DNA of 64,000 nucleotides from a virus. The position numbers and the translations under genes were made by a program. Positions 29,084 to 59,207 of the stretch are shown piece by piece. Under the pieces are notes generated by a model. That model saw nothing but the letters and a program-made list of their open reading frames with translations. It made no database searches and was not told the origin of the DNA. Where the stretch lies: IMG/VR virus record IMGVR_UViG_3300025000_000067, positions 1 to 64,000 of that record. The stretch is one strand, 5' to 3'. Within the stretch, counting starts at the first letter, position 1, and every line of letters begins with the position of its first letter.

Positions 29084-29575
29084 GTGAGGTTAAAAGTAGT
29101 AATTGCAATTGAAGTACTTCTTATATTTATATTACTTCTGTTGATCTCATACCAAGAGCAGCATCTTATGCCTAAGCCTAGTATTCATACTGTAGCGAGT
29201 GGCTTTCCCCAAGACTACCAAAGAGTTGTAGTACCACCTAAACCAGAACCTCAGAAGTCCCGTAGTAGTGACTTAGACCTTTTATGTGATTTTGAAGTCA
29301 CATGGTATAACAACGATGGCATAACCTATACAACAGCTAGTGGAGGACAGACCATAGCTGGCCGGACAGTAGGAGTTGATCCTAGGATTATACCCTTAGG
29401 AACATGGATCGAGATTCACATGCCTGATGGCAGTATTTTAAAACGAAGAGCTGAGGACACAGGGGGAGCAGTAAAAGGACGCATATTAGACGTCTACGCT
29501 AACAGGTCGAACGCAGAGCTTTTAAAACGTGGTAGAACTAAAGGGGTTGCAGTACGAATACTAGGAGGTAGTTAG
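29084..29575 (+). CDS. 3D-domain protein with N-terminal membrane anchor
   Basis: Residues 1-20 (VVIAIEVLLIFILLLLIS) form a signal anchor. From about 70 the 3D domain is clear: CDFEVTWYNNDG, VGVDPRIIPLGTWIEI, AEDTGGAVKGRILDVY, with the three conserved Asp. This double-psi barrel occurs in lytic transglycosylase-like wall enzymes such as YabE/Rpf relatives. It may remodel peptidoglycan. GTG start after GGGTGGTG. Confidence 0.8.
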   Translation: MRLKVVIAIEVLLIFILLLLISYQEQHLMPKPSIHTVASGFPQDYQRVVVPPKPEPQKSRSSDLDLLCDFEVTWYNNDGITYTTASGGQTIAGRTVGVDPRIIPLGTWIEIHMPDGSILKRRAEDTGGAVKGRILDVYANRSNAELLKRGRTKGVAVRILGGS

Positions 29576-30933: not shown

Positions 30934-31047
30934 ATGGTGATGTGTAGGTATACATGGGGTTGTGCCCAGTGTAATCAACATTATGATTGTAAAACTAAGT
31001 ACTGTAACACATGCGCTTTACCAGATTGTCCTTTATTATTAAAATAG
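30934..31047 (+). CDS. Possible Cys-rich micro-protein (36-37 aa)
   Basis: ATG 30934 or 30940 opens MCRYTWGCAQCNQHYDC, continuing KTKYCNTCALPDCP. Seven Cys in 36 residues suggest a metal knuckle. The ribosome binding site is weak (AAAAAGATGGTG), so the gene is uncertain. Confidence 0.35.
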   Translation: MVMCRYTWGCAQCNQHYDCKTKYCNTCALPDCPLLLK

Positions 31048-31053
31048 TGGATA

Positions 31054-31096
31054 AGAAGAGCCTGTGGTGACCTCGGATGGGGGCCACAGGCTCTTC
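31054..31096 (+). terminator. Long hairpin/terminator (copy 1)
   Basis: AGAAGAGCCTGTGG pairs perfectly with CCACAGGCTCTTCT over 14 bases. A near copy lies at 31715-31760. Confidence 0.7.
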
Positions 31097-31117
31097 TACT
31101 AGGGGGTGTCGTAGGTA

Positions 31118-31708
31118 TTGTTTGAGAAGACACGAAGTCTTAATAGCATTGTAAGTTTTAATTTGAACGTGCACCAATTCTATATACCTAAGCTATATAC
31201 AGAGTATCGGAGTTTGGTTAATAAGCTTGGCTTGTGCACTCTAAGAACTGATCATGCATCTCTACTTGAAGACTTGCCATTTTATATAGTCGATGCCCAT
31301 AAAGACAGCAGTGAAAAATTAGATGCTATATGGGCTAATGCACAGGATAGGGGTTACAGGTTTATCATAAGTGACGGTATTAAGTATGATGCTATTCAAG
31401 AGTATAATATGGTTGTTAAATTTCAGGAAGACGGTCATTTTTTATTTGAAGCTTCAGGCTTAAAAGTCCCACTTAGGCATATGTACAGATATCCTACTTC
31501 ACTGCTATCATGTACTGGCACCTTATCAGAGGGGATTCACCTTTGGTACATGTTTAATGTACAATATGGGCTAAATAGGCTAGTAATTAAAAATGATTTG
31601 TTAACTCTATACAACTACGGATTATTTGATAAGTGGTTAGAGGTAACAAAGTACCCAATACCAGTAGGCATAAGAAACGAAAACATTGTATTCTGGCAAA
31701 TAAAGTAA
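31118..31708 (+). CDS. Hypothetical protein (196 aa)
   Basis: TTG 31118 is the most upstream start with AGGGGGTG nearby. The protein is rich in aromatic residues (VHQFYIPKLYTEYRSL, IHLWYMFNVQYGLNRL) and seems globular. It is convergent with the minus-strand transfer-like module and isolated between two similar hairpins, like an inserted single-gene cassette. Function unknown. Confidence 0.5.
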   Translation: MFEKTRSLNSIVSFNLNVHQFYIPKLYTEYRSLVNKLGLCTLRTDHASLLEDLPFYIVDAHKDSSEKLDAIWANAQDRGYRFIISDGIKYDAIQEYNMVVKFQEDGHFLFEASGLKVPLRHMYRYPTSLLSCTGTLSEGIHLWYMFNVQYGLNRLVIKNDLLTLYNYGLFDKWLEVTKYPIPVGIRNENIVFWQIK

Positions 31709-31714
31709 TTAACA

Positions 31715-31760
31715 GAAAGAGCCCGTGGTTACCTCAGATGAGGGCCACAGGCTCTTTCTG
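31715..31760. terminator. Bidirectional hairpin/terminator (copy 2)
   Basis: AGAAAGAGCCCGTGG pairs with CCACAGGCTCTTTCT with one mismatch. It lies between convergent genes and resembles the hairpin at 31054. Confidence 0.7.
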
Positions 31761-32642
31761 TTTACCATACCATATAGGCCCCAAGGGATCTTCTGAAGCC
31801 AATTCATTTGATGTAAAGAGCCACTGCAGGTCAGTATTGTCTATTCCATAGATAGCGTTCCTCAGCCTCAGAGCGCGGTCTAGGTTTGTCGTGACTGTTA
31901 GGATAAGGGGGAAGGTTCCATAGATCGATTCAAAGCTTTTAGAGGCATAGTAGGCTGTATAGCGCTGGTGTTTCCTTTGGAAGACCGGTAGGCTCATGGT
32001 TCCATTGTCTAATTCTAGGAAAAAGTGGATACCTTCATCTTCTGAAAACCAATACTGGCCATAAGCATCCGGATTACATACCATCTTCTTCCCCCAGAAG
32101 GTGAAACTATGTCGGGTATGGTTTTCTGTTCTGTACCCGGTAACTTCATGCTTATGTTTTCGAGCATTCCGGAGAAGTGAAATGTAGAAGTTATTGATGT
32201 CTACCATATGCTTAAGGTACGGAAGTCTTGTTTCGTTCATTTCATAGGACCATGATAGTTCTTCTACTTCTTGGTTAAGAAGTCCGGCTACAATCTTGGC
32301 ACCCAGTTTATCAAGGATAATATGGCCTTGGCTTGTTCCTTCATTCCCAATGTCTACAAAGAATCGGTCAACGAGTTGAGCATCAAAAAGTTTTCGGATC
32401 CTTCGTCTTGCAATAAGCTCTGATTGAGAGTTTTCAAGTCCTTTAGAGTTGTATCTGTAGTGCATTTCAGCTATTTGTCTGGTGGTTAAGCAGCGTTGAT
32501 AGTAGATAGATAACAGGACTTCTCTATCCCTTGGCGTTAACATAGGGTTCTGGTAAACTTCTCGTATTGACCGCTCAGTGTCCCCCTGTTTTCTGACGAA
32601 TTTATTAATCCTTCGTGAGGTAATTTGTCTAGTTTCTAGCAT
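31734..32642 (-). CDS. Replication-relaxation family protein
   Basis: The 302-aa protein begins with a winged helix: LTPRDREVLLSIYYQRCLTT, RQIAEMHY, LIARRRIRKLFDAQLVDRF. The second half (RHSFTFWGKKMVCNPDAYGQY, then FFLELDNGTMSLPVFQRKHQRY) matches the replication-relaxation family (PF13814 type). That family is usual on plasmids and integrative elements of Bacillota beside TraG-like ATPases. It is encoded directly after the ATPase gene here. The role is probably control of initiation or of transfer of element DNA. Confidence 0.78.
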   Translation of the reverse strand: MLETRQITSRRINKFVRKQGDTERSIREVYQNPMLTPRDREVLLSIYYQRCLTTRQIAEMHYRYNSKGLENSQSELIARRRIRKLFDAQLVDRFFVDIGNEGTSQGHIILDKLGAKIVAGLLNQEVEELSWSYEMNETRLPYLKHMVDINNFYISLLRNARKHKHEVTGYRTENHTRHSFTFWGKKMVCNPDAYGQYWFSEDEGIHFFLELDNGTMSLPVFQRKHQRYTAYYASKSFESIYGTFPLILTVTTNLDRALRLRNAIYGIDNTDLQWLFTSNELASEDPLGPIWYGKQKEPVALI

Positions 32643-32653
32643 ACCCTATCCTC

Positions 32654-35131
32654 CTACTTAACTCTCTGGATCTTACCTGTGGCCTTCCCAGTCTTTATAG
32701 AAGCACTCTGGTCTTCGGTAATCTGATTCTTTTGGATGGTACTATATCGGGCTTCTATGTCATCTTTTATTTCTGAGATATGCTTATAATTCCTAGTTTT
32801 ATAAGCATCTTTCCATTTCTTAACTTCAGCTAGCCCAACACTAGGAAAGTAGTCATCCATGTTAAGACAATCAAAAGTGAAAGGACTTGGGTGGATCTTT
32901 TTAAACCGTCCGTAGCCTGTATACTGAACCATAGATGTTAGGTCCTCTTCTGTAACTTCCGGCAGCATACGTTTGATTTTAGGTGCTGAAGATGTCCCTA
33001 TGAGTAGGCTCACTTGGGTGAAGGTGTTGTCTTCGATCATGCCCATAAGCTTAGCTGGGATCTGTTCAACGCTTTGATGGGCTAGGACTAAACCTAGGCC
33101 ATAGCTTCTGGCCATTTCTAAGAAACGCTGAATATCAGATTCTTGGTCGAGGAACATCTCAAATTCGTCTAAGATGGCCACATGGGGTATCCGTTTATCG
33201 ACTTCTGTATCCCCTCTACTAAATACCGCTTTACTGATAAAGGCAGTGAATAGGGTTCCGAAGAAGGAGATAATTTCGTTTTCGTTTTTGTCTAGCGCAA
33301 AGTTGACTATAATAATTGCTTTTTCGTCTAACATCTTTCTCCATTTATACAAGTTTGTCTTTTGACACATGCTATACCGCGGTAATTCATTTTGGGTAAT
33401 GACCTCAAGCTTATTAAGGATAGCTTTAGACTCTGCTTGGCGTGCTCTAATCTTCATGCCTTTGTAGCTTTGCCAGTAGCTTAGGACATCCGGAAATTCT
33501 GTGTCATCTTCCATCTTAGCTAGGGTCCAATCTAAATAATCTTCATCTGTGAACATGCGGTAGACTTCTAGTATAGATCCTTCAGGATTTGTGCTTATGA
33601 CTGCAATGAGGGCTCTTCTGAGGATGCTTTGACTGTGCTCCTTAATAGAACCCTCACTATTGAGTTTTAGGAAGACAGAGACGATCATAGTGGCCAGATT
33701 GTAGGTGCTCATACCAGGCTGTATCAGGAAATTAAGAGGTATAAACTGCGCTATGTCCTGAAGGTCAATGTAATGTACCCGGTGCCATTCACTTTTTGGA
33801 AGATGGGCCATTAGTTCATCGGCCACATCTCCTTTAACGTCAAAGAAGGTCAGACCACAGTGTCTTATAATTTGAAGTCCTAAGAACGATAGCCACCAGC
33901 TTTTTCCGCTACCTGTTCCACCAATGCAGTAGACATGTTGCATAAGCATTTTAATATCTTTAAAAGCTAGGTATTTTAGACGACCTCTAAAGTTTGATCT
34001 TCCGAAGACAATAGCTTGGTCTTTCCACGCTTCTTCAATGGTATTGTACTGATAGACTCCATCAGGTACAGGCATTTTTTTAGCCTGCAGTCGTATGATT
34101 CCTGGGATGTTCTTTGCTGGGAAATGGAGGATCGTTGCAAGCTCTGCTGGGGTAACATAGTTTTCAATAGGGTATGTATGAATTCTTCTTGCTGCATAGT
34201 CTTTCAAGAATTGACTTACCCCGTGTTGGTTAAATAATCTTAAATGTCTTTTATAGTATTTTTCTCGGTAGTCAGAGAAGGGTCTAAAACGATTTTTATC
34301 AGTGGCTGGTGCAAAGGAGCTAATAACTGTGGATAAGCGTGCTCGGGCTTTACCGAAGGCATTGTGGCTGCATACGAGACGTATTTCTAAGTCAAAATAA
34401 ATACCGGCTTCTAGTTTCTTTTGAATTGAGTTTAAACTGGTGTTATGGTCTTTTGATCCAGCATTGCCTGTGAGGGTATAGTGTATAGCTCCTAGTAATG
34501 CTTTGGGGGTTTTCATTAGTCCAGTCCATTTAGCATATGGGTAGTGCATGCGACTAGGTCGTTTACCTGTTTTTTTATATATTTCGTAGTGGCTATTGGC
34601 TATGACTAAGGCTCTATAGGGTACAGGTCTTAGGGTAAATTGAACCCATACTTCTTCTTCATCATCTAGGTTTTGCATGGAGGCGCATAAACTAGCTATC
34701 ATATCTGCTCCGATGCGTTCACCGTCTGACTGTAGAAGATTAAAGAGATAATGGCTGTCAAGTTCTAGCGTGGCACAGGCTACGTTTAAGGCATAGAGTC
34801 TTCCGAAGCGTCCGTAATCTTTTTTAGGTGTAATAATTTCTGCTGATTTGTGGATAGAGTTTATATTGCTCTGGATAAAATCTTTTTCTAGATTTTTTGA
34901 AAGCCAAGTGTATAGGTTAATACCTTTATTGGTTCCTTGGAACTCAAAGCTTAACCAGTCATAGGGTTTTTTAGGGTTATATATCGTATAGAGAGAATCA
35001 AATAGACTATTGTACTGAGATGGCTTAAATTCAGAATCTTTTTCAATGAGTATTTGGTATAGGTTCCCATTCTTAGATCCACTGCTTAAGCGTTTTCGGT
35101 GAATAGGGTACATTAGGCTTTTTATGATCAT
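32654..35131 (-). CDS. TraG/VirD4-like ATPase (coupling-protein type)
   Basis: The 825-aa protein has a Walker A CIGGTGSGKSWWLSFLG near 416, FFDVKGD near 443, Walker B HVAILDEFEMFL near 655, and the arginine/Gln region ARSYGLGLVLAHQSVEQIP. These are features of the VirD4/TraG/TrwB and FtsK-like DNA pump family. The first 400 residues are a plasmid-specific domain without clear membrane helices. Two small membrane proteins encoded upstream may anchor it. The likely job is moving DNA or substrate across a membrane or between cells, in a phage context. Confidence 0.82.
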   Translation of the reverse strand: MIIKSLMYPIHRKRLSSGSKNGNLYQILIEKDSEFKPSQYNSLFDSLYTIYNPKKPYDWLSFEFQGTNKGINLYTWLSKNLEKDFIQSNINSIHKSAEIITPKKDYGRFGRLYALNVACATLELDSHYLFNLLQSDGERIGADMIASLCASMQNLDDEEEVWVQFTLRPVPYRALVIANSHYEIYKKTGKRPSRMHYPYAKWTGLMKTPKALLGAIHYTLTGNAGSKDHNTSLNSIQKKLEAGIYFDLEIRLVCSHNAFGKARARLSTVISSFAPATDKNRFRPFSDYREKYYKRHLRLFNQHGVSQFLKDYAARRIHTYPIENYVTPAELATILHFPAKNIPGIIRLQAKKMPVPDGVYQYNTIEEAWKDQAIVFGRSNFRGRLKYLAFKDIKMLMQHVYCIGGTGSGKSWWLSFLGLQIIRHCGLTFFDVKGDVADELMAHLPKSEWHRVHYIDLQDIAQFIPLNFLIQPGMSTYNLATMIVSVFLKLNSEGSIKEHSQSILRRALIAVISTNPEGSILEVYRMFTDEDYLDWTLAKMEDDTEFPDVLSYWQSYKGMKIRARQAESKAILNKLEVITQNELPRYSMCQKTNLYKWRKMLDEKAIIIVNFALDKNENEIISFFGTLFTAFISKAVFSRGDTEVDKRIPHVAILDEFEMFLDQESDIQRFLEMARSYGLGLVLAHQSVEQIPAKLMGMIEDNTFTQVSLLIGTSSAPKIKRMLPEVTEEDLTSMVQYTGYGRFKKIHPSPFTFDCLNMDDYFPSVGLAEVKKWKDAYKTRNYKHISEIKDDIEARYSTIQKNQITEDQSASIKTGKATGKIQRVK

Positions 35132-35367
35132 GCTGTCATACCACCTTTGACTGCTTCTTTAATAATATTCCATAGGAGCTGGCCAAGGTCTGTTATTGCT
35201 TGACCGGAGTGTAAGTAGAGTACTAACGCATCACGTTTTACTTGTAGGGCATAGATAACTAAATTACACATTTTAACTATAAAGATTAAGATTACACCAG
35301 TAAAAACACTACCGAAAGTTATCTTTAATATCCAAGATTCAATCTCGTTATGTGAAGGTATATGCAT
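35128..35367 (-). CDS. Small membrane protein of the transfer-like module (79 aa)
   Basis: The start overlaps no other gene, and its stop overlaps the ATPase start by four bases. One hydrophobic segment, ILKITFGSVFTGVILIFIVKMCNLVIYALQ (split here by position 15-45), is followed by an amphipathic end. It is likely cotranslated with the ATPase and anchors it, as T4SS accessory proteins do; this is inference. Confidence 0.6.
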   Translation of the reverse strand: MHIPSHNEIESWILKITFGSVFTGVILIFIVKMCNLVIYALQVKRDALVLYLHSGQAITDLGQLLWNIIKEAVKGGMTA

Positions 35368-35376
35368 AATATCCTC

Positions 35377-35823
35377 CTAAACGCTAAGTAACGTTTTACA
35401 AGCAGCATAGATATCATTAAATAACCCAATAACTTCATAAAGTATAATTCCACCACCGACAAAGGCAACAAGAGGAATAACATCACCGCGTCCTGTAAAC
35501 TTTAAAAATGAACTTACAACTAAAGTAAAAAAGCCAACAACAAGCATATGGAGTAATATAGCTCCTTTCCCTCCCCAAAAACTTGTAGGTACGACTGTTC
35601 CTGATGTAACAGCTAGCGCTGGGTGCATAAAGTTAAAGAGAGCTGAACCAGGTAGTAGAATATTAAGAGTTGTAAAAGCTATACTAGGTGCTAAAGCAAC
35701 AGCTAGATTAACTATTTTTTGGTGTTTTTTGTACCAACGTATAAAACTTCGATTAATAAATACTAATTCAGAATCTAAATACTTTAATTCAGACAACTTT
35801 CCAATTACTTGTACTTTTTTCAT
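35377..35823 (-). CDS. Multi-pass membrane protein of the transfer-like module (148 aa)
   Basis: Hydrophobic segments lie near 40-60 (VNLAVALAPSIAFTTLNILL), 85-105 (AILLHMLVVGFFTLVVSSFL) and 110-130 (VIPLVAFVGGGIILYEVIGL). A basic N-terminal part (SFIRWYKKHQK) precedes them. Topology recalls VirB2/TrbC- or VirB6-like subunits, but no family match is claimed. It is the first gene of the unit that contains the ATPase. Ribosome binding site AAAGGAAG. Confidence 0.6.
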   Translation of the reverse strand: MKKVQVIGKLSELKYLDSELVFINRSFIRWYKKHQKIVNLAVALAPSIAFTTLNILLPGSALFNFMHPALAVTSGTVVPTSFWGGKGAILLHMLVVGFFTLVVSSFLKFTGRGDVIPLVAFVGGGIILYEVIGLFNDIYAACKTLLSV

Positions 35824-35840: not shown

Positions 35841-35869
35841 GATATACTGTGGTGTATTTTTATGTTAAA
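35841..35869 (-). promoter_or_regulatory. Promoter of the transfer-like module
   Basis: Read on the minus strand: TTTAAC, 17-nt spacer, TATATC. It is well placed before the gene that starts at 35823. Confidence 0.55.
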
Positions 35870-35937
35870 CATTAGATTTACATGCAAGTACCAATAAATT
35901 AAGAAATAGTATCTCAGGTATATCTTTATTGAATAAT

Positions 35938-35986
35938 ACAAAAAGAAATGCTAAGAAGCTTGCTGTCAGCGGTTTCTTAGCATTTT
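35938..35986. terminator. Bidirectional terminator
   Basis: AAAATGCTAAGAA pairs with TTCTTAGCATTTT, with A and T runs on the two sides. It separates the ParM unit from the transfer-like unit. Confidence 0.75.
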
Positions 35987-36080: not shown

Positions 36081-36425
36081 CTACCATATCTTTAGTTGAA
36101 ATCGTTGTTTCCTTGGAAACCAAGAAATCAACTTATCACTCAAAATATGAACAACAGCTCCTAAAGCTATAAACTCAAAAACTACTACACCAAACAATAA
36201 GAAAGGAAAAGCTAACAATAAAATACCAAATAAGCTATGACAATGCCCTCTGTGTTTCATCCATCGACTAAAAATATTATATCGACCCAATGTTGATGTT
36301 CGGAGATCAATATCAGGTAATAGACTTCCAAAAAGAATACAAAAAAACAATAAAGGACTTTGAACTATAAACAACCCAACTACTGATCCTATAATAAGAT
36401 GACCTAAAAAGTTGAATACAATCAC
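36081..36425 (-). CDS. YdjM-like membrane-bound metal-dependent hydrolase (short)
   Basis: The sequence GHLIIGSVVGLF, LFGSLLPDIDLRTSTLGR and MKHRGHCHSLFGILLL follows the YdjM pattern, with His/Asp metal ligands between membrane helices. At 114 aa it is shorter than chromosomal homologues. Some members are induced by DNA damage. It is the last gene of the ParM transcription unit. Confidence 0.7.
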   Translation of the reverse strand: MIVFNFLGHLIIGSVVGLFIVQSPLLFFCILFGSLLPDIDLRTSTLGRYNIFSRWMKHRGHCHSLFGILLLAFPFLLFGVVVFEFIALGAVVHILSDKLISWFPRKQRFQLKIW

Positions 36426-36752: not shown

Positions 36753-37730
36753 TCACCCCTCTGAGAGCTTAAGAAGCCCGTATTTCCGGTAACCATTAGC
36801 ATTTGCAAGCTCTGCATTATCCATAGTAAGGCAAGGTACACCTGTAAACTCAGTAATGTAGTCTGTATAAACATGAGCCCCACCACCACAAAGGATCACC
36901 GCTGAAAACCTTCTGAAGTCTGGTATATGAAGACTAAGCTCATCTTGTAGTGTAGGTAGCCTGACTTCAATAGCCTTTCTAACAAGTTCATGAACCTCTA
37001 CCTTTTTACCACCTAGCTTTAAAAGACCTGTACGTAAGACTCGATCCACTTCCATAGGCTGAGGTAAAAAACTAAATGAGTGTGAGATAAGCTTTCTAAG
37101 TTCTTTTTGTACTTCATGAACTCCTTCCCAGATAGTAAAGGAGTCCTGTGAGAAGGCACCTTCCTCCATTATGCATCCATCCGTTGACTTACCACCTATG
37201 TCAAGGATTAAGAGGTCTTCAGAAGCCAGCTCTGTGTTCCTCTCTTCCCCCTCAGCATCCAGTACAAAGTCAAAAAATGCCCCGGCAGACTGGGGAAGGA
37301 CTAAAGAATCATTGACTTTAACAAGGCGCTGCACAGCATTAAAGCCGAAGTTAAAACCCCCCTTTAACCGTTCAGCAAAAGCTAGCTTAGAAGCTTCACG
37401 CTTATACTCTTCAACCGGTAGGCCAGATACAAGTAAATCAATAATACTAACACCTGTAGATTCTTGGTAGAGTCCTAAAATTGTGAGTAACTTCGGTAGA
37501 TCCGATTCAGAGGACAACCGCTCAGACTTAAAATCAAAAGATCCTTTAGACCCTACGTTCCATGATCCCCCATGCTCCGTTGTAATAAGATATCCTTCTG
37601 AATCATTTAGATCTCCCATAATAACTTCTGAACGCCTTTTGCTAAGTGACGGGCAAGTATCATCCCAGTCTTTTCCTACCCCTTTAAGTTGGACAAAGCC
37701 AAGGTCAGCACCAACTACATTTTTCTTCAT
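36753..37730 (-). CDS. parM: ParM-like actin-family segregation ATPase
   Basis: The 325-aa protein carries the actin-fold nucleotide motifs: VVGADLGFVQLKG at 4-16 (phosphate 1), LILDIGGKSTDGC near 176 (phosphate 2) and VILCGGGAHVYTDYI near 283 (adenosine). These match ParM/Alp-type bacterial actins. Such filaments push replicated plasmids apart. Upstream lie repeats that could be parC, and a ParR-like gene follows. Its presence implies that the phage genome is kept as a low-copy plasmid in lysogeny. Confidence 0.85.
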   Translation of the reverse strand: MKKNVVGADLGFVQLKGVGKDWDDTCPSLSKRRSEVIMGDLNDSEGYLITTEHGGSWNVGSKGSFDFKSERLSSESDLPKLLTILGLYQESTGVSIIDLLVSGLPVEEYKREASKLAFAERLKGGFNFGFNAVQRLVKVNDSLVLPQSAGAFFDFVLDAEGEERNTELASEDLLILDIGGKSTDGCIMEEGAFSQDSFTIWEGVHEVQKELRKLISHSFSFLPQPMEVDRVLRTGLLKLGGKKVEVHELVRKAIEVRLPTLQDELSLHIPDFRRFSAVILCGGGAHVYTDYITEFTGVPCLTMDNAELANANGYRKYGLLKLSEG

Positions 37731-37740
37731 TGTTTAACCA

Positions 37741-37872
37741 GCTCCTTATTTGTTGAACACTCCGTTAAACACTATTCAACAAAGCTTAGTTATATCCTGC
37801 TTAGAGTGTTAAACATTTGATAAAACAACTATACTCCTACGCTATTATGTGTTAAGTATATAGGGACTATCT
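37741..37872 (-). repeat. Iteron-bearing region upstream of parM (candidate parC)
   Basis: Variants of TTNAACACT recur in both orientations: TTGAACACT (37753), TTAAACACT (37765), AGTGTTAAA (37805) and GTGTTAAG (37850), with CAACAAAG between. Type II centromeres lie in this position and both bind ParR and control the promoter. Confidence 0.55.
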
Positions 37873-39625: not shown

Positions 39626-40408
39626 ATGAATGAAATTACAGGACCTTTAGAGTTACGAGATGACTATACATCCATAATCGTTAGTTACTCAACAGGCATA
39701 GACTCAACAGGGGCCTTAGCCAAAGCCTTAGAACTTGCTAAGAAGTTACCACGAAAGACCAAAAAGTTTCTGCTTTATTGTGACACAGGTATGGAGTACA
39801 AAATTAATACTGGGTTATTCTACCAAGTAGCAAAAGCGTTTAAATTAGTACCAGTGCTACTTCAGAATGAAAAAACCTTTCTAGATATCCTACTTGAGCG
39901 CCAGAAGTGGCCGGATATGAAAAATCGTTGGTGTACCTCCTATCTTAAGACAGGAGTAACAGATAAATGGATCAGAGCAAATCGTCACATGCTAGGAGAG
40001 AGGGTGCTGTTTATAACCGGGGAGCGCCGGGATGAAAGTCCACGTAGAGCAAAGTATCCAGAATTGGATTGGCAAAGCACTACGCTCAAAACAGAGCGGA
40101 AAGGTAGATTCATATGCCACTGGTATCGGCCTGTTCTTGACTTTGAGAAGGGTAAAATGTTTGAGTATGGTAAAAAACTCCATATTCCCCCGCACCCCTG
40201 CTATGAGTATGTGAATAGATGTAGCTGCATGTTCTGTGTTTTCATGATGGATAAGCATACTATTGAGAATATGAAAAACCATCCTCAAGACGCACAGAAA
40301 TGGTTACAGGCAGAACTAAAGATAAATCACACCTGGAAGAACAAGATGAGCTTAAATAAGCTCTGGAATGAAAACTGTGAAGAAGCCCCTATGAATATCA
40401 TTGTCTAA
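39626..40408 (+). CDS. PAPS reductase/DndC-family PP-loop protein
   Basis: The PP-loop SYSTGIDSTGALAKAL near residue 18 fits the SGGxDS consensus of adenylyl-sulphur transfer enzymes, with Thr and Ile in place of two Gly. RWCTSYLKTG near 101, GERRDESPRRAKYP near 131 and the Cys cluster NRCSCMFCVF near 200 match the PAPS-reductase/DndC branch. Such phage proteins may act in sulphur chemistry, including DNA or tRNA modification; the substrate is not visible here. No DndA/D/E gene is seen nearby. Confidence 0.78.
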   Translation: MNEITGPLELRDDYTSIIVSYSTGIDSTGALAKALELAKKLPRKTKKFLLYCDTGMEYKINTGLFYQVAKAFKLVPVLLQNEKTFLDILLERQKWPDMKNRWCTSYLKTGVTDKWIRANRHMLGERVLFITGERRDESPRRAKYPELDWQSTTLKTERKGRFICHWYRPVLDFEKGKMFEYGKKLHIPPHPCYEYVNRCSCMFCVFMMDKHTIENMKNHPQDAQKWLQAELKINHTWKNKMSLNKLWNENCEEAPMNIIV

Positions 40409-58300: not shown

Positions 58301-58615
58301 ATGAAAATGCGGAAGATTGTGCAGAAAGTTGTACATTTGAAAGAACATAGGGTAGCCGTACTAGCCTATAGAATGTCAGAGGGTTCTGAAGTACAATACC
58401 TGACTGCTATGCCTAAGGAAGGTAGGCGCATGCTCAAGGAGTTTAGAGAAACTGGTAAGTTTACACGATTAAAACCATGGGTAAGCAGAGATGCCTTAGA
58501 AGTTCTAGAGCCTGTGAGTATGACTATGGCATACACAGATGGCTGGTACGCTAAGATTCCTGCAGTCATTGACTATAAGGAGGATGAAACAAATGGATAT
58601 GTACATTGGATTTAA
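58301..58615 (+). CDS. Hypothetical protein (104 aa)
   Basis: ATG 58301 follows AGAGGAGG. The product is basic and beta-rich (KVVHLKEHRVAVLAYRMSEG, PVSMTMAYTDGWYAKIPAVI). Its end overlaps the next gene. Function unknown. Confidence 0.55.
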   Translation: MKMRKIVQKVVHLKEHRVAVLAYRMSEGSEVQYLTAMPKEGRRMLKEFRETGKFTRLKPWVSRDALEVLEPVSMTMAYTDGWYAKIPAVIDYKEDETNGYVHWI

Positions 58616-59207
58616 GATGATCGAGGCAAAGCCTATGACAGCAAAAGAGGCTAGCCTAATACTATTTGATCGGCCAATTAGCACTGAGAACGCTGATGAA
58701 GAAGGTAATGGCTATCTAGTGAAGTATGAAGATGGCTACACCTCATGGTCACCTAAAGCTCAGTTTGAAAAGGCATACACAAAATTTGGGACTAGGAGTG
58801 CCATAGGTGAAGGCCTAGAAATCAAACCGATTGACTCAAGTGTTTGTATAATCAAATTTAAAGAGGACTTCTCACACGAAGAGATTGAGTCATTTAAGAA
58901 AGCATGGAGAACTGCGATGTGTAGTCCAGGATCACCTAAAGTAACAGCGCTCTGTGTGCCAAATACCATAGACATAAAATCCTTAGAGGGGACAACCTTT
59001 GATTTCTCAGTGGCCCTGAAGCTTCTGAAGTTAGGGTATAAGGTCACAAGAACCTACTGGATGGATGGGGATAGTGTGGTTTACTGGCTAGAGCTGGTAG
59101 ATAACGATATTCGAAAAGGCCGGATGTACGCTGGTAACCTAAGCTATTGGGATGATGCAGAGTCGGCAGCTCTGTTAGCTGAAGACTATAAGCTCATGAA
59201 GCGCTAA
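58593..59207 (+). CDS. Two-domain phage protein with DUF2829/Tad2-like C-terminus (204 aa)
   Basis: ATG 58593 follows AAGGAGG at nine bases. The N-terminal part KMIEAKPMTAKEASLILFDR and YLVKYEDGYTSWSPKAQFEK matches a small domain frequent in phages. The C-terminal part TFDFSVALKLLKLGYKVTRT, then WMDGDSVVYWLEL and ALLAEDYKLMK resembles DUF2829, the fold of Tad2. Tad2 is known to sequester the Thoeris signal molecule. Anti-defence function is inferred from this resemblance only; the middle region is unassigned. Confidence 0.5.
   Translation: MDMYIGFKMIEAKPMTAKEASLILFDRPISTENADEEGNGYLVKYEDGYTSWSPKAQFEKAYTKFGTRSAIGEGLEIKPIDSSVCIIKFKEDFSHEEIESFKKAWRTAMCSPGSPKVTALCVPNTIDIKSLEGTTFDFSVALKLLKLGYKVTRTYWMDGDSVVYWLELVDNDIRKGRMYAGNLSYWDDAESAALLAEDYKLMKR

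What the first reader, a model, noticed from the sequence alone, without database searches (positions are those of the whole stretch)
31734..35823. TraG/VirD4-like ATPase module on a phage
A coupling-protein-type ATPase, a replication-relaxation protein and two small membrane proteins form a minus-strand unit with its own promoter. Such sets are typical of conjugative or mobilisable elements rather than phages. The phage may have a cell-to-cell transfer or DNA-translocation route besides virions.
Basis: partly seen in the sequence, partly recalled or inferred. Interest (0 to 1): 0.75.

Follow-up and report, generated by a model that had tools for sequence, protein, structure and literature searches.

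The report
Plasmid-style DNA-transfer cassette inside phage
This bacterial virus carries, next to genes that look like a DNA-partitioning set, the two proteins that mobilisable plasmids use to nick their DNA and feed it to a membrane channel, and the same set is kept in related viruses and in the classic phage SPO1, so these viruses may move their DNA in a way other than by virus particles, although no channel and no transfer has been shown.

Summary
Four minus-strand genes at 31734-35823 encode a VirD4/TraG-type ATPase, a Replic_Relax protein and two small membrane proteins, in a genuine 102-kb tailed-phage contig. With the adjacent ParM-like, RHH-like and YdjM-like genes, the order is kept in related phage contigs. 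The ATPase groups with conjugative coupling proteins, not with FtsK, VirB4 or terminase. Its neighbour belongs to PF13814, which the literature equates with MOB_C relaxases (CloDF13 MobC, pAD1 TraX), and it keeps the nuclease-type residues. No VirB4, TrbL/VirB6 or TcpC-like channel gene was found, so the phage should not be self-conjugative; at most it is mobilisable through a helper channel. Comparable cassettes lie in SPO1 (gp27.3-27.9) and were reported in Tyroviruses, so the kind is known. New here: the SPO1 and phage G equivalences, the coupling-protein identity of PHROG 5156, and a SpoIIIAC-like membrane subunit where a VirB2 pilin might be expected. Function is untested; mobilisation, genome maintenance or forespore delivery, and defence remain open.

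The parts
31734..32642 (-). Replic_Relax / MOB_C-type relaxase homologue, 302 aa; PD...ExD...K..Y residues
   Evidence: PF13814 86.8 bits, cut-off 25.3; phrog_9381; motif alignment with SPO1 and plasmid relatives; low-confidence model aligns to several PD-(D/E)XK nucleases, Z about 6
32654..35131 (-). VirD4/TraG-type coupling-protein ATPase, 825 aa, Walker A GTGSGK, Walker B LDEFE, no N-terminal TM helix
   Evidence: PF02534 above cut-off; phrog_5156 162 bits; hhalign against T4CP, FtsK, VirB4, TerL; motif alignment
35128..35367 (-). 79-aa single-TM protein overlapping the ATPase start by 4 bases; possible detached membrane anchor of the coupling protein
   Evidence: position conserved in L004, L006, L013
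35377..35823 (-). 148-aa membrane protein with C-terminal alpha-hairpin, SpoIIIAC-like (over Pfam cut-off in three relatives)
   Evidence: PF06686 18.2 bits here, 24.0-26.3 in relatives, cut-off 24; no TrbC/VirB2 match
36081..36425 (-). YdjM-like membrane protein, 114 aa
   Evidence: PF04307 47.8 bits; conserved in L004, L006, L013
36490..36744 (-). 84-aa RHH-like ORF in the usual ParR position
   Evidence: no Pfam match; conserved N-terminus by eye
36753..37730 (-). ParM-like actin homologue, 325 aa
   Evidence: PF17989 and PF21522 above cut-off; phrog_691 E 3e-42
31711..31762 (.). hairpin between converging genes, likely bidirectional terminator of the cassette
   Evidence: 18-nt arms, 94% complementary; terminator scan hit
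35946..35985 (-). hairpin followed by T-rich stretch between the YdjM and 148-aa genes; probable terminator separating two transcription units
   Evidence: 12-nt perfect arms; comparable hairpin in L004 and L013, not L006
35863..35877 (-). 15-nt element ATCTAATGTTTAACA upstream of the 148-aa gene; possible promoter or operator
   Evidence: the only two copies in the window lie upstream of the two minus-strand units
37807..37821 (-). second copy, ATCAAATGTTTAACA, upstream of the ParM-like gene

Best explanation
The unit is a mobilisation (MOB)-type DNA-processing cassette of the CloDF13 kind: a VirD4-type coupling protein followed by a MOB_C (PF13814) relaxase homologue, with two small membrane proteins, next to a ParM/RHH partition-like set. 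Proposed mechanism: the relaxase homologue binds and nicks a site on the phage genome; the coupling protein, held at the membrane through the 79-aa and/or 148-aa proteins, recruits that complex and pumps the DNA; ParM and the RHH protein bring the genome to the membrane. Because the phage appears to encode no channel ATPase or channel, export to another cell would need a helper type IV secretion system, as for CloDF13, during a plasmid-like carrier stage. Shown here: family identities, gene order, conservation in four phages, and absence of detectable VirB4, TrbL and tested relaxase and integrase families in the held sequence. Inferred: nicking, membrane complex, use of the phage's own DNA as substrate, helper-dependent transfer. 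Rough odds: cassette identity (coupling protein + MOB_C-type protein) 0.9; acts on the phage's own DNA 0.65; ever transfers it between cells 0.3.
For: Profile comparison places the ATPase with coupling proteins from plasmid conjugation operons (B. licheniformis/Peribacillus 99.1%, Embleya 99.5%) and phage G gp156 (99.3%), and not with FtsK, VirB4 or terminase. In those plasmids the ATPase and Replic_Relax genes are adjacent, in the same order, within operons that also hold a VirB4-type ATPase and lytic enzymes; the two genes are adjacent in Peribacillus too. pGIAK1, with Replic_Relax + VirD4 + VirB4, was shown to transfer (PMC3756968). PF13814 corresponds to MOB_C relaxases, and streptococcal IMEs with a PF13814 relaxase carry a VirD4 coupling protein (PMC5357655, PMC12479173). 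MOB_C relaxases are related to PD-(D/E)XK nucleases (PMC12857230); the PD, ExD and K..Y residues are conserved here and the model's C-terminal part aligns to such nucleases. ParM/ParR of R1 bind relaxase and coupling protein and promote transfer (PMC4949242). The cassette proteins (ParM 57%, relaxase 57-69%, ATPase 63-73% identity) are at least as conserved as a neighbouring exonuclease (53-55%).
Against: No channel ATPase, TrbL or TcpC-like protein was found. No convincing oriT repeats. The ATPase lacks its own TM helix. SPO1, which I know as a lytic phage, keeps a homologous set, which fits poorly with plasmid-style mobilisation. The 148-aa protein resembles SpoIIIAC, not a VirB2 pilin. The relaxase model is weak (mean pLDDT 51), and absences in a contig without end repeats may be incomplete.
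Confidence: 0.4

Rival explanations
1. Intracellular genome maintenance: ParM/RHH segregate a plasmid-like phage genome, the relaxase homologue relaxes it or starts replication, and the ATPase pumps or anchors DNA at the septum. In spore-formers this could trap the genome in the forespore, as SpoIIIE does for the chromosome.
For: ParM-like gene adjacent with conserved order in L004 and L013; SPO1 and Tyroviruses have comparable sets, read by others as plasmid-prophage functions (PMC9703825, PMC10454425, PMC7685451); SpoIIIAC-like membrane protein over the Pfam cut-off in three relatives, with only B. subtilis over the cut-off among 14 control genomes; the named phages found with these genes infect Bacillales; phage Grass has ParM-like and FtsK/SpoIIIE-like genes in one region.
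Against: The ATPase is a coupling protein, not FtsK/SpoIIIE; no parC-like iterons; the SpoIIIAC match is a short two-helix hairpin; the host of this contig is unknown.
Confidence: 0.3
2. Defence or competition: a membrane ATPase plus a PD-(D/E)XK-type nuclease attacks incoming phage or plasmid DNA, analogous to HerA-nuclease or MADS systems.
For: The ATPase matches PADLOC mad8 (E 2e-13) and weakly HerA models; the partner carries a nuclease-like motif.
Against: These matches cover the shared core (residues 390-740); the Replic_Relax protein has no PADLOC match; its homologues sit in conjugation operons.
Confidence: 0.12
3. Interference with conjugation: the coupling protein occupies the channel of a resident conjugative plasmid and blocks its transfer.
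For: A chimeric coupling protein was negatively dominant over native ones for transfer (PMC7431656); the channel is missing here.
Against: Does not explain the conserved relaxase homologue and ParM neighbours; no direct evidence.
Confidence: 0.05
4. Ordinary phage packaging or FtsK-type gene.
For: PHROG 2666, labelled terminase, matches at E 2e-6.
Against: The phage has its own terminase; hhalign to it gives 0.2%; PHROG 2666 holds phage G gp155, a VirB4 homologue, at 904 bits.
Confidence: 0.02

Closest known systems
CloDF13 MobB-MobC mobilisation pair and PF13814/VirD4 streptococcal IMEs
   Same: VirD4-type coupling protein plus MOB_C-type relaxase with no channel of its own
   Different: On a phage, beside a ParM-like partition set; coupling protein lacks its own TM domain; no oriT recognised. 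CloDF13 sequences were not compared here
Tyrovirus gp11-gp18 (Thrax phages; PMC9703825)
   Same: ParM, RHH-type protein, T4SS protein and Replic_Relax in one phage region
   Different: Sequences were not in the searched collection, so homology was not tested; Tyroviruses also have three Xer recombinases, and no PF00589 recombinase was found here
SPO1 gp27.3-gp27.9
   Same: Relaxase homologue, coupling-type ATPase, small membrane proteins and ParM in the same order on one strand
   Different: No YdjM-like gene annotated; no SpoIIIAC match in the genome; ATPase very divergent
Phage G gp146, gp150, gp153-gp156
   Same: Relaxase homologue and coupling protein
   Different: Phage G also has TrbL_4 and VirB4 homologues, nearer to a full secretion system; its ParM-like gene is elsewhere
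T4SS operon of B. licheniformis plasmid NZ_CP035190
   Same: ATPase followed directly by Replic_Relax
   Different: Plasmid operon continues with TcpC/TcpE-like, VirB4 and lytic transglycosylase genes

Membership tests
VirD4-type coupling protein (T4CP) | nucleotide-binding domain with Walker A/B, matching T4CP profiles | tested here: met
   PF02534 23.1 bits, cut-off 20.1; motifs; hhalign to plasmid T4CPs 99%
VirD4-type coupling protein (T4CP) | N-terminal transmembrane domain (in most members, not all) | tested here: not met
   No N-terminal hydrophobic helix in the 825-aa protein; the adjacent 79-aa protein has one. Some plasmid members also lack it
VirD4-type coupling protein (T4CP) | transfers a relaxase-DNA complex | not testable with these tools
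   needs mating or mobilisation assay
MOB_C relaxase (PF13814) | Replic_Relax domain above the curated cut-off | tested here: met
   86.8 vs 25.3 bits; also in the relatives, SPO1 and phage G
MOB_C relaxase (PF13814) | PD-(D/E)XK-like catalytic residues | tested here: met
   PD, ExD and K..Y conserved with SPO1 and plasmid members; mutational paper on TraX not held
MOB_C relaxase (PF13814) | PD-(D/E)XK fold | tested here: inconclusive
   Z 5.8-6.7 to BsoBI, N.BspD6I, FokI on a model of mean pLDDT 51; no Foldseek match at E under 0.001
MOB_C relaxase (PF13814) | oriT with direct and inverted repeats | tested here: inconclusive
   only terminator-like hairpins and chance-level repeats
MOB_C relaxase (PF13814) | site-specific nicking | not testable with these tools
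   biochemistry needed
self-transmissible conjugative element | VirB4 and TrbL/VirB6 channel genes | tested here: not met
   none in G000 or relatives beyond the coupling protein itself; contigs may be fragments
VirB2/TrbC pilin (148-aa protein) | TrbC or T4SS-pilin profile match | tested here: not met
   no TrbC match in G000-G003; no hhalign match to pilin-like proteins
SpoIIIAC/AD family (148-aa protein) | PF06686 above the curated cut-off | tested here: inconclusive
   18.2 bits here; 24.0-26.3 in three homologues, cut-off 24; short hydrophobic hairpin
ParMRC partition system | actin-like ParM | tested here: met
   PF17989, PF21522
ParMRC partition system | ParR with RHH fold and parC iterons | tested here: inconclusive
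   84-aa ORF RHH-like by eye only; no iterons found
FtsK/SpoIIIE translocase | FtsK-type profile over the motor domain | tested here: not met
   26-37% over 19-42 columns only
large terminase | terminase ATPase-nuclease profile | tested here: not met
   0.2%; separate terminase gene
HerA/MADS defence ATPase | system context with defence partners | tested here: inconclusive
   mad8 match, but no other PADLOC match among eight cassette and neighbouring proteins

The most novel reading that the evidence does not exclude
Large phages of spore-formers carry a dedicated DNA-delivery machine, made of a MOB_C relaxase, a VirD4-type pump, a SpoIIIAC-like membrane subunit and ParM, that moves the phage genome across a membrane inside a dividing or sporulating host (mother cell to forespore) or into a neighbouring cell, independent of virions.
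Probability: 0.15. Interest if true: 0.9.

Novelty: new variant of a known kind. Interest (0 to 1): 0.55.

Why it matters
If the cassette works, some tailed phages have a second route for DNA movement, or an active way to enter spores, and a laboratory phage (SPO1) could test it directly. The comparison also gives a likely identity to PHROG 5156 (listed as unknown function) and links Replic_Relax genes of Bacillus phages, usually read as replication genes, to MOB_C relaxases.

Tried and rejected
VirB2-pilin reading of the 148-aa protein, suggested by eye: no TrbC match and no hhalign match. FtsK and terminase readings of the ATPase: rejected. Structure of the ATPase: model unusable (mean pLDDT 39), its Foldseek list meaningless. 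Sequence search of solved structures with alignments of the 148-aa, ATPase and relaxase proteins: no matches. Close relatives in genome contigs: none, so host unknown. Relaxase query in viral contigs: none. PF03432 relaxase and PF00589 integrase in own record and relatives: none. Repeat search for oriT or parC: nothing above chance. Rfam: only the tRNA. Tyrovirus genomes by accession (ON548417, KC481682, NC_023007): not held. Tree of coupling proteins: the four related phages form one clade, but deeper joins are unsupported or long-branched, so no claim is made on the source of the cassette.

Full report
Observation. The four minus-strand genes exist exactly as described, in a 102,131-bp IMG/VR virus record with terminase, portal and major tail protein genes. 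The 825-aa protein is above the PF02534 cut-off, and the 302-aa protein is a strong Replic_Relax (PF13814) match. The 79-aa protein has one predicted TM helix and the 148-aa protein about three. Upstream on the same strand lie a YdjM-like gene, an RHH-like ORF and a ParM-like gene.

Boundaries. A hairpin at 31711-31762 separates the cassette from the converging plus-strand gene, and another at 35946-35985 separates the YdjM and 148-aa genes; a comparable hairpin lies at the second place in L004 and L013, not in L006. A 15-nt element, ATCWAATGTTTAACA, occurs twice in the window, once upstream of each minus-strand unit. Promoter function is not shown.

Conservation. Searches with the ATPase found L004/L005, L006 and L013 (63-73% identity). 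In L004, L006 and L013 the 148-aa, 79-aa, ATPase and relaxase genes have the same order, with YdjM and RHH-like genes before them, and a ParM-like gene in L004 and L013. L006 gave no ParM match in the stretch held. The cassette proteins are at least as conserved as a neighbouring exonuclease.

What the ATPase is. A four-phage profile aligns over 591-707 columns to coupling proteins from plasmids and to phage G gp156 at 99%, and to SPO1 gp27.4, vB_BpsM-61 and TP-84 ATPases at 96-98%; FtsK, VirB4 and terminase give 37% or less over short stretches. PHROG 5156 (unknown function) matches SPO1 gp27.4 at 1025 bits, phage G gp156 at 690, a B. licheniformis plasmid coupling protein at 175 and the window protein at 162 bits, so this family is most likely the phage branch of coupling proteins.

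What the partner is. PF13814 was equated with the MOB_C relaxase superfamily by CONJscan-based work, and IMEs carrying it have a VirD4 coupling protein (PMC5357655, PMC12479173). MOB_C relaxases resemble PD-(D/E)XK nucleases (PMC12857230). The PD, ExD and K..Y residues are kept in the window, its relatives, SPO1 and plasmid proteins, with ExE in the two Bacillaceae plasmid proteins. A weak model (mean pLDDT 51) aligns in its C-terminal part to BsoBI, N.BspD6I and FokI at Z 5.8-6.7, which is supportive only.

What is missing. No VirB4 apart from the coupling protein's own weak match, no P-loop_TraG, no TrbL_4, no PF03432 relaxase, no PF00589 integrase, and no phmmer match to the other conjugation proteins of three plasmids. 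The record has no end repeats, so it may be incomplete, but the relatives, up to 105 kb, also lack the families searched.

The 148-aa protein. Its alpha-hairpin reaches the SpoIIIAC/AD Pfam cut-off in three relatives (24.0-26.3 bits, cut-off 24) and 18.2 bits here; among 14 control genomes one passes the cut-off and B. subtilis heads the list. TrbC/VirB2 gives nothing in these four phages, while TP-84 and phage G have sub-threshold TrbC matches. Short hydrophobic hairpins can mislead, so this is a lead.

Wider picture. SPO1 gp27.3 (relaxase homologue), 27.4 (ATPase), 27.5-27.7 (small membrane proteins), 27.8 and 27.9 (ParM) are in the same order on one strand. Phage G has gp146 (relaxase homologue), gp153 (TrbL_4), gp155 (VirB4), gp156 (coupling protein) and a weak TrbC match at gp150. 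Tyroviruses were reported with a comparable region (PMC9703825), and Novomoskovsk with TrbC/VirB2, Replic_Relax, FtsK and RHH genes (PMC9658697). The kind is therefore known, and others read it as a plasmid-prophage trait.

Mechanism. The best-supported reading is a mobilisation-type cassette acting on phage DNA, with R1 ParM/ParR (PMC4949242) as a precedent for partition proteins working with relaxase and coupling protein, and CloDF13 (PMC7431656) for a coupling protein carried by an element without a channel. Whether it moves DNA between cells, within a cell or into a forespore, or serves defence (mad8 match) cannot be decided from sequence.

Noticed in passing
NC_023719.1 85059-93336 (L008, L031): Phage G holds TrbL_4 (gp153), VirB4 (gp155), VirD4-type (gp156), Replic_Relax (gp146) and a weak TrbC match (gp150): close to a full type IV secretion gene set. 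PHROG 2666, which holds gp155, is labelled terminase large subunit and seems mislabelled.
   Followed up: partly
window 31040-31097 and 31711-31762: Two near-identical long hairpin elements (80% over 56 nt) flank the ORF at 31118-31708; no other copy in the window.
   Followed up: partly
window 35863-35877 and 37807-37821: 15-nt element found only upstream of the two minus-strand units; may be a phage promoter or operator.
   Followed up: partly
window 58539-59207: Weak Tad2-like (Thoeris anti-defence) match, below the Pfam cut-off.
   Followed up: no
window 29084-29575: 3D-domain protein, also found near the cassette in L004 and L006.
   Followed up: no
window 39626-40408: Phosphoadenosine phosphosulfate reductase-like protein (PHROG 424).
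   Followed up: no
L022 6758-13214 (phage Grass): ParM-like gene followed about 3 kb later by an FtsK/SpoIIIE-like gene; similar in phage f2b1 (L024): a possible parallel pairing of ParM with a DNA pump.
   Followed up: no
L009 (Priestia plasmid pFDU301A): T4SS genes (VirB4 pieces, PrgI-like, T4SS pilin, coupling protein) not annotated in the plasmid collection's gene table.
   Followed up: no
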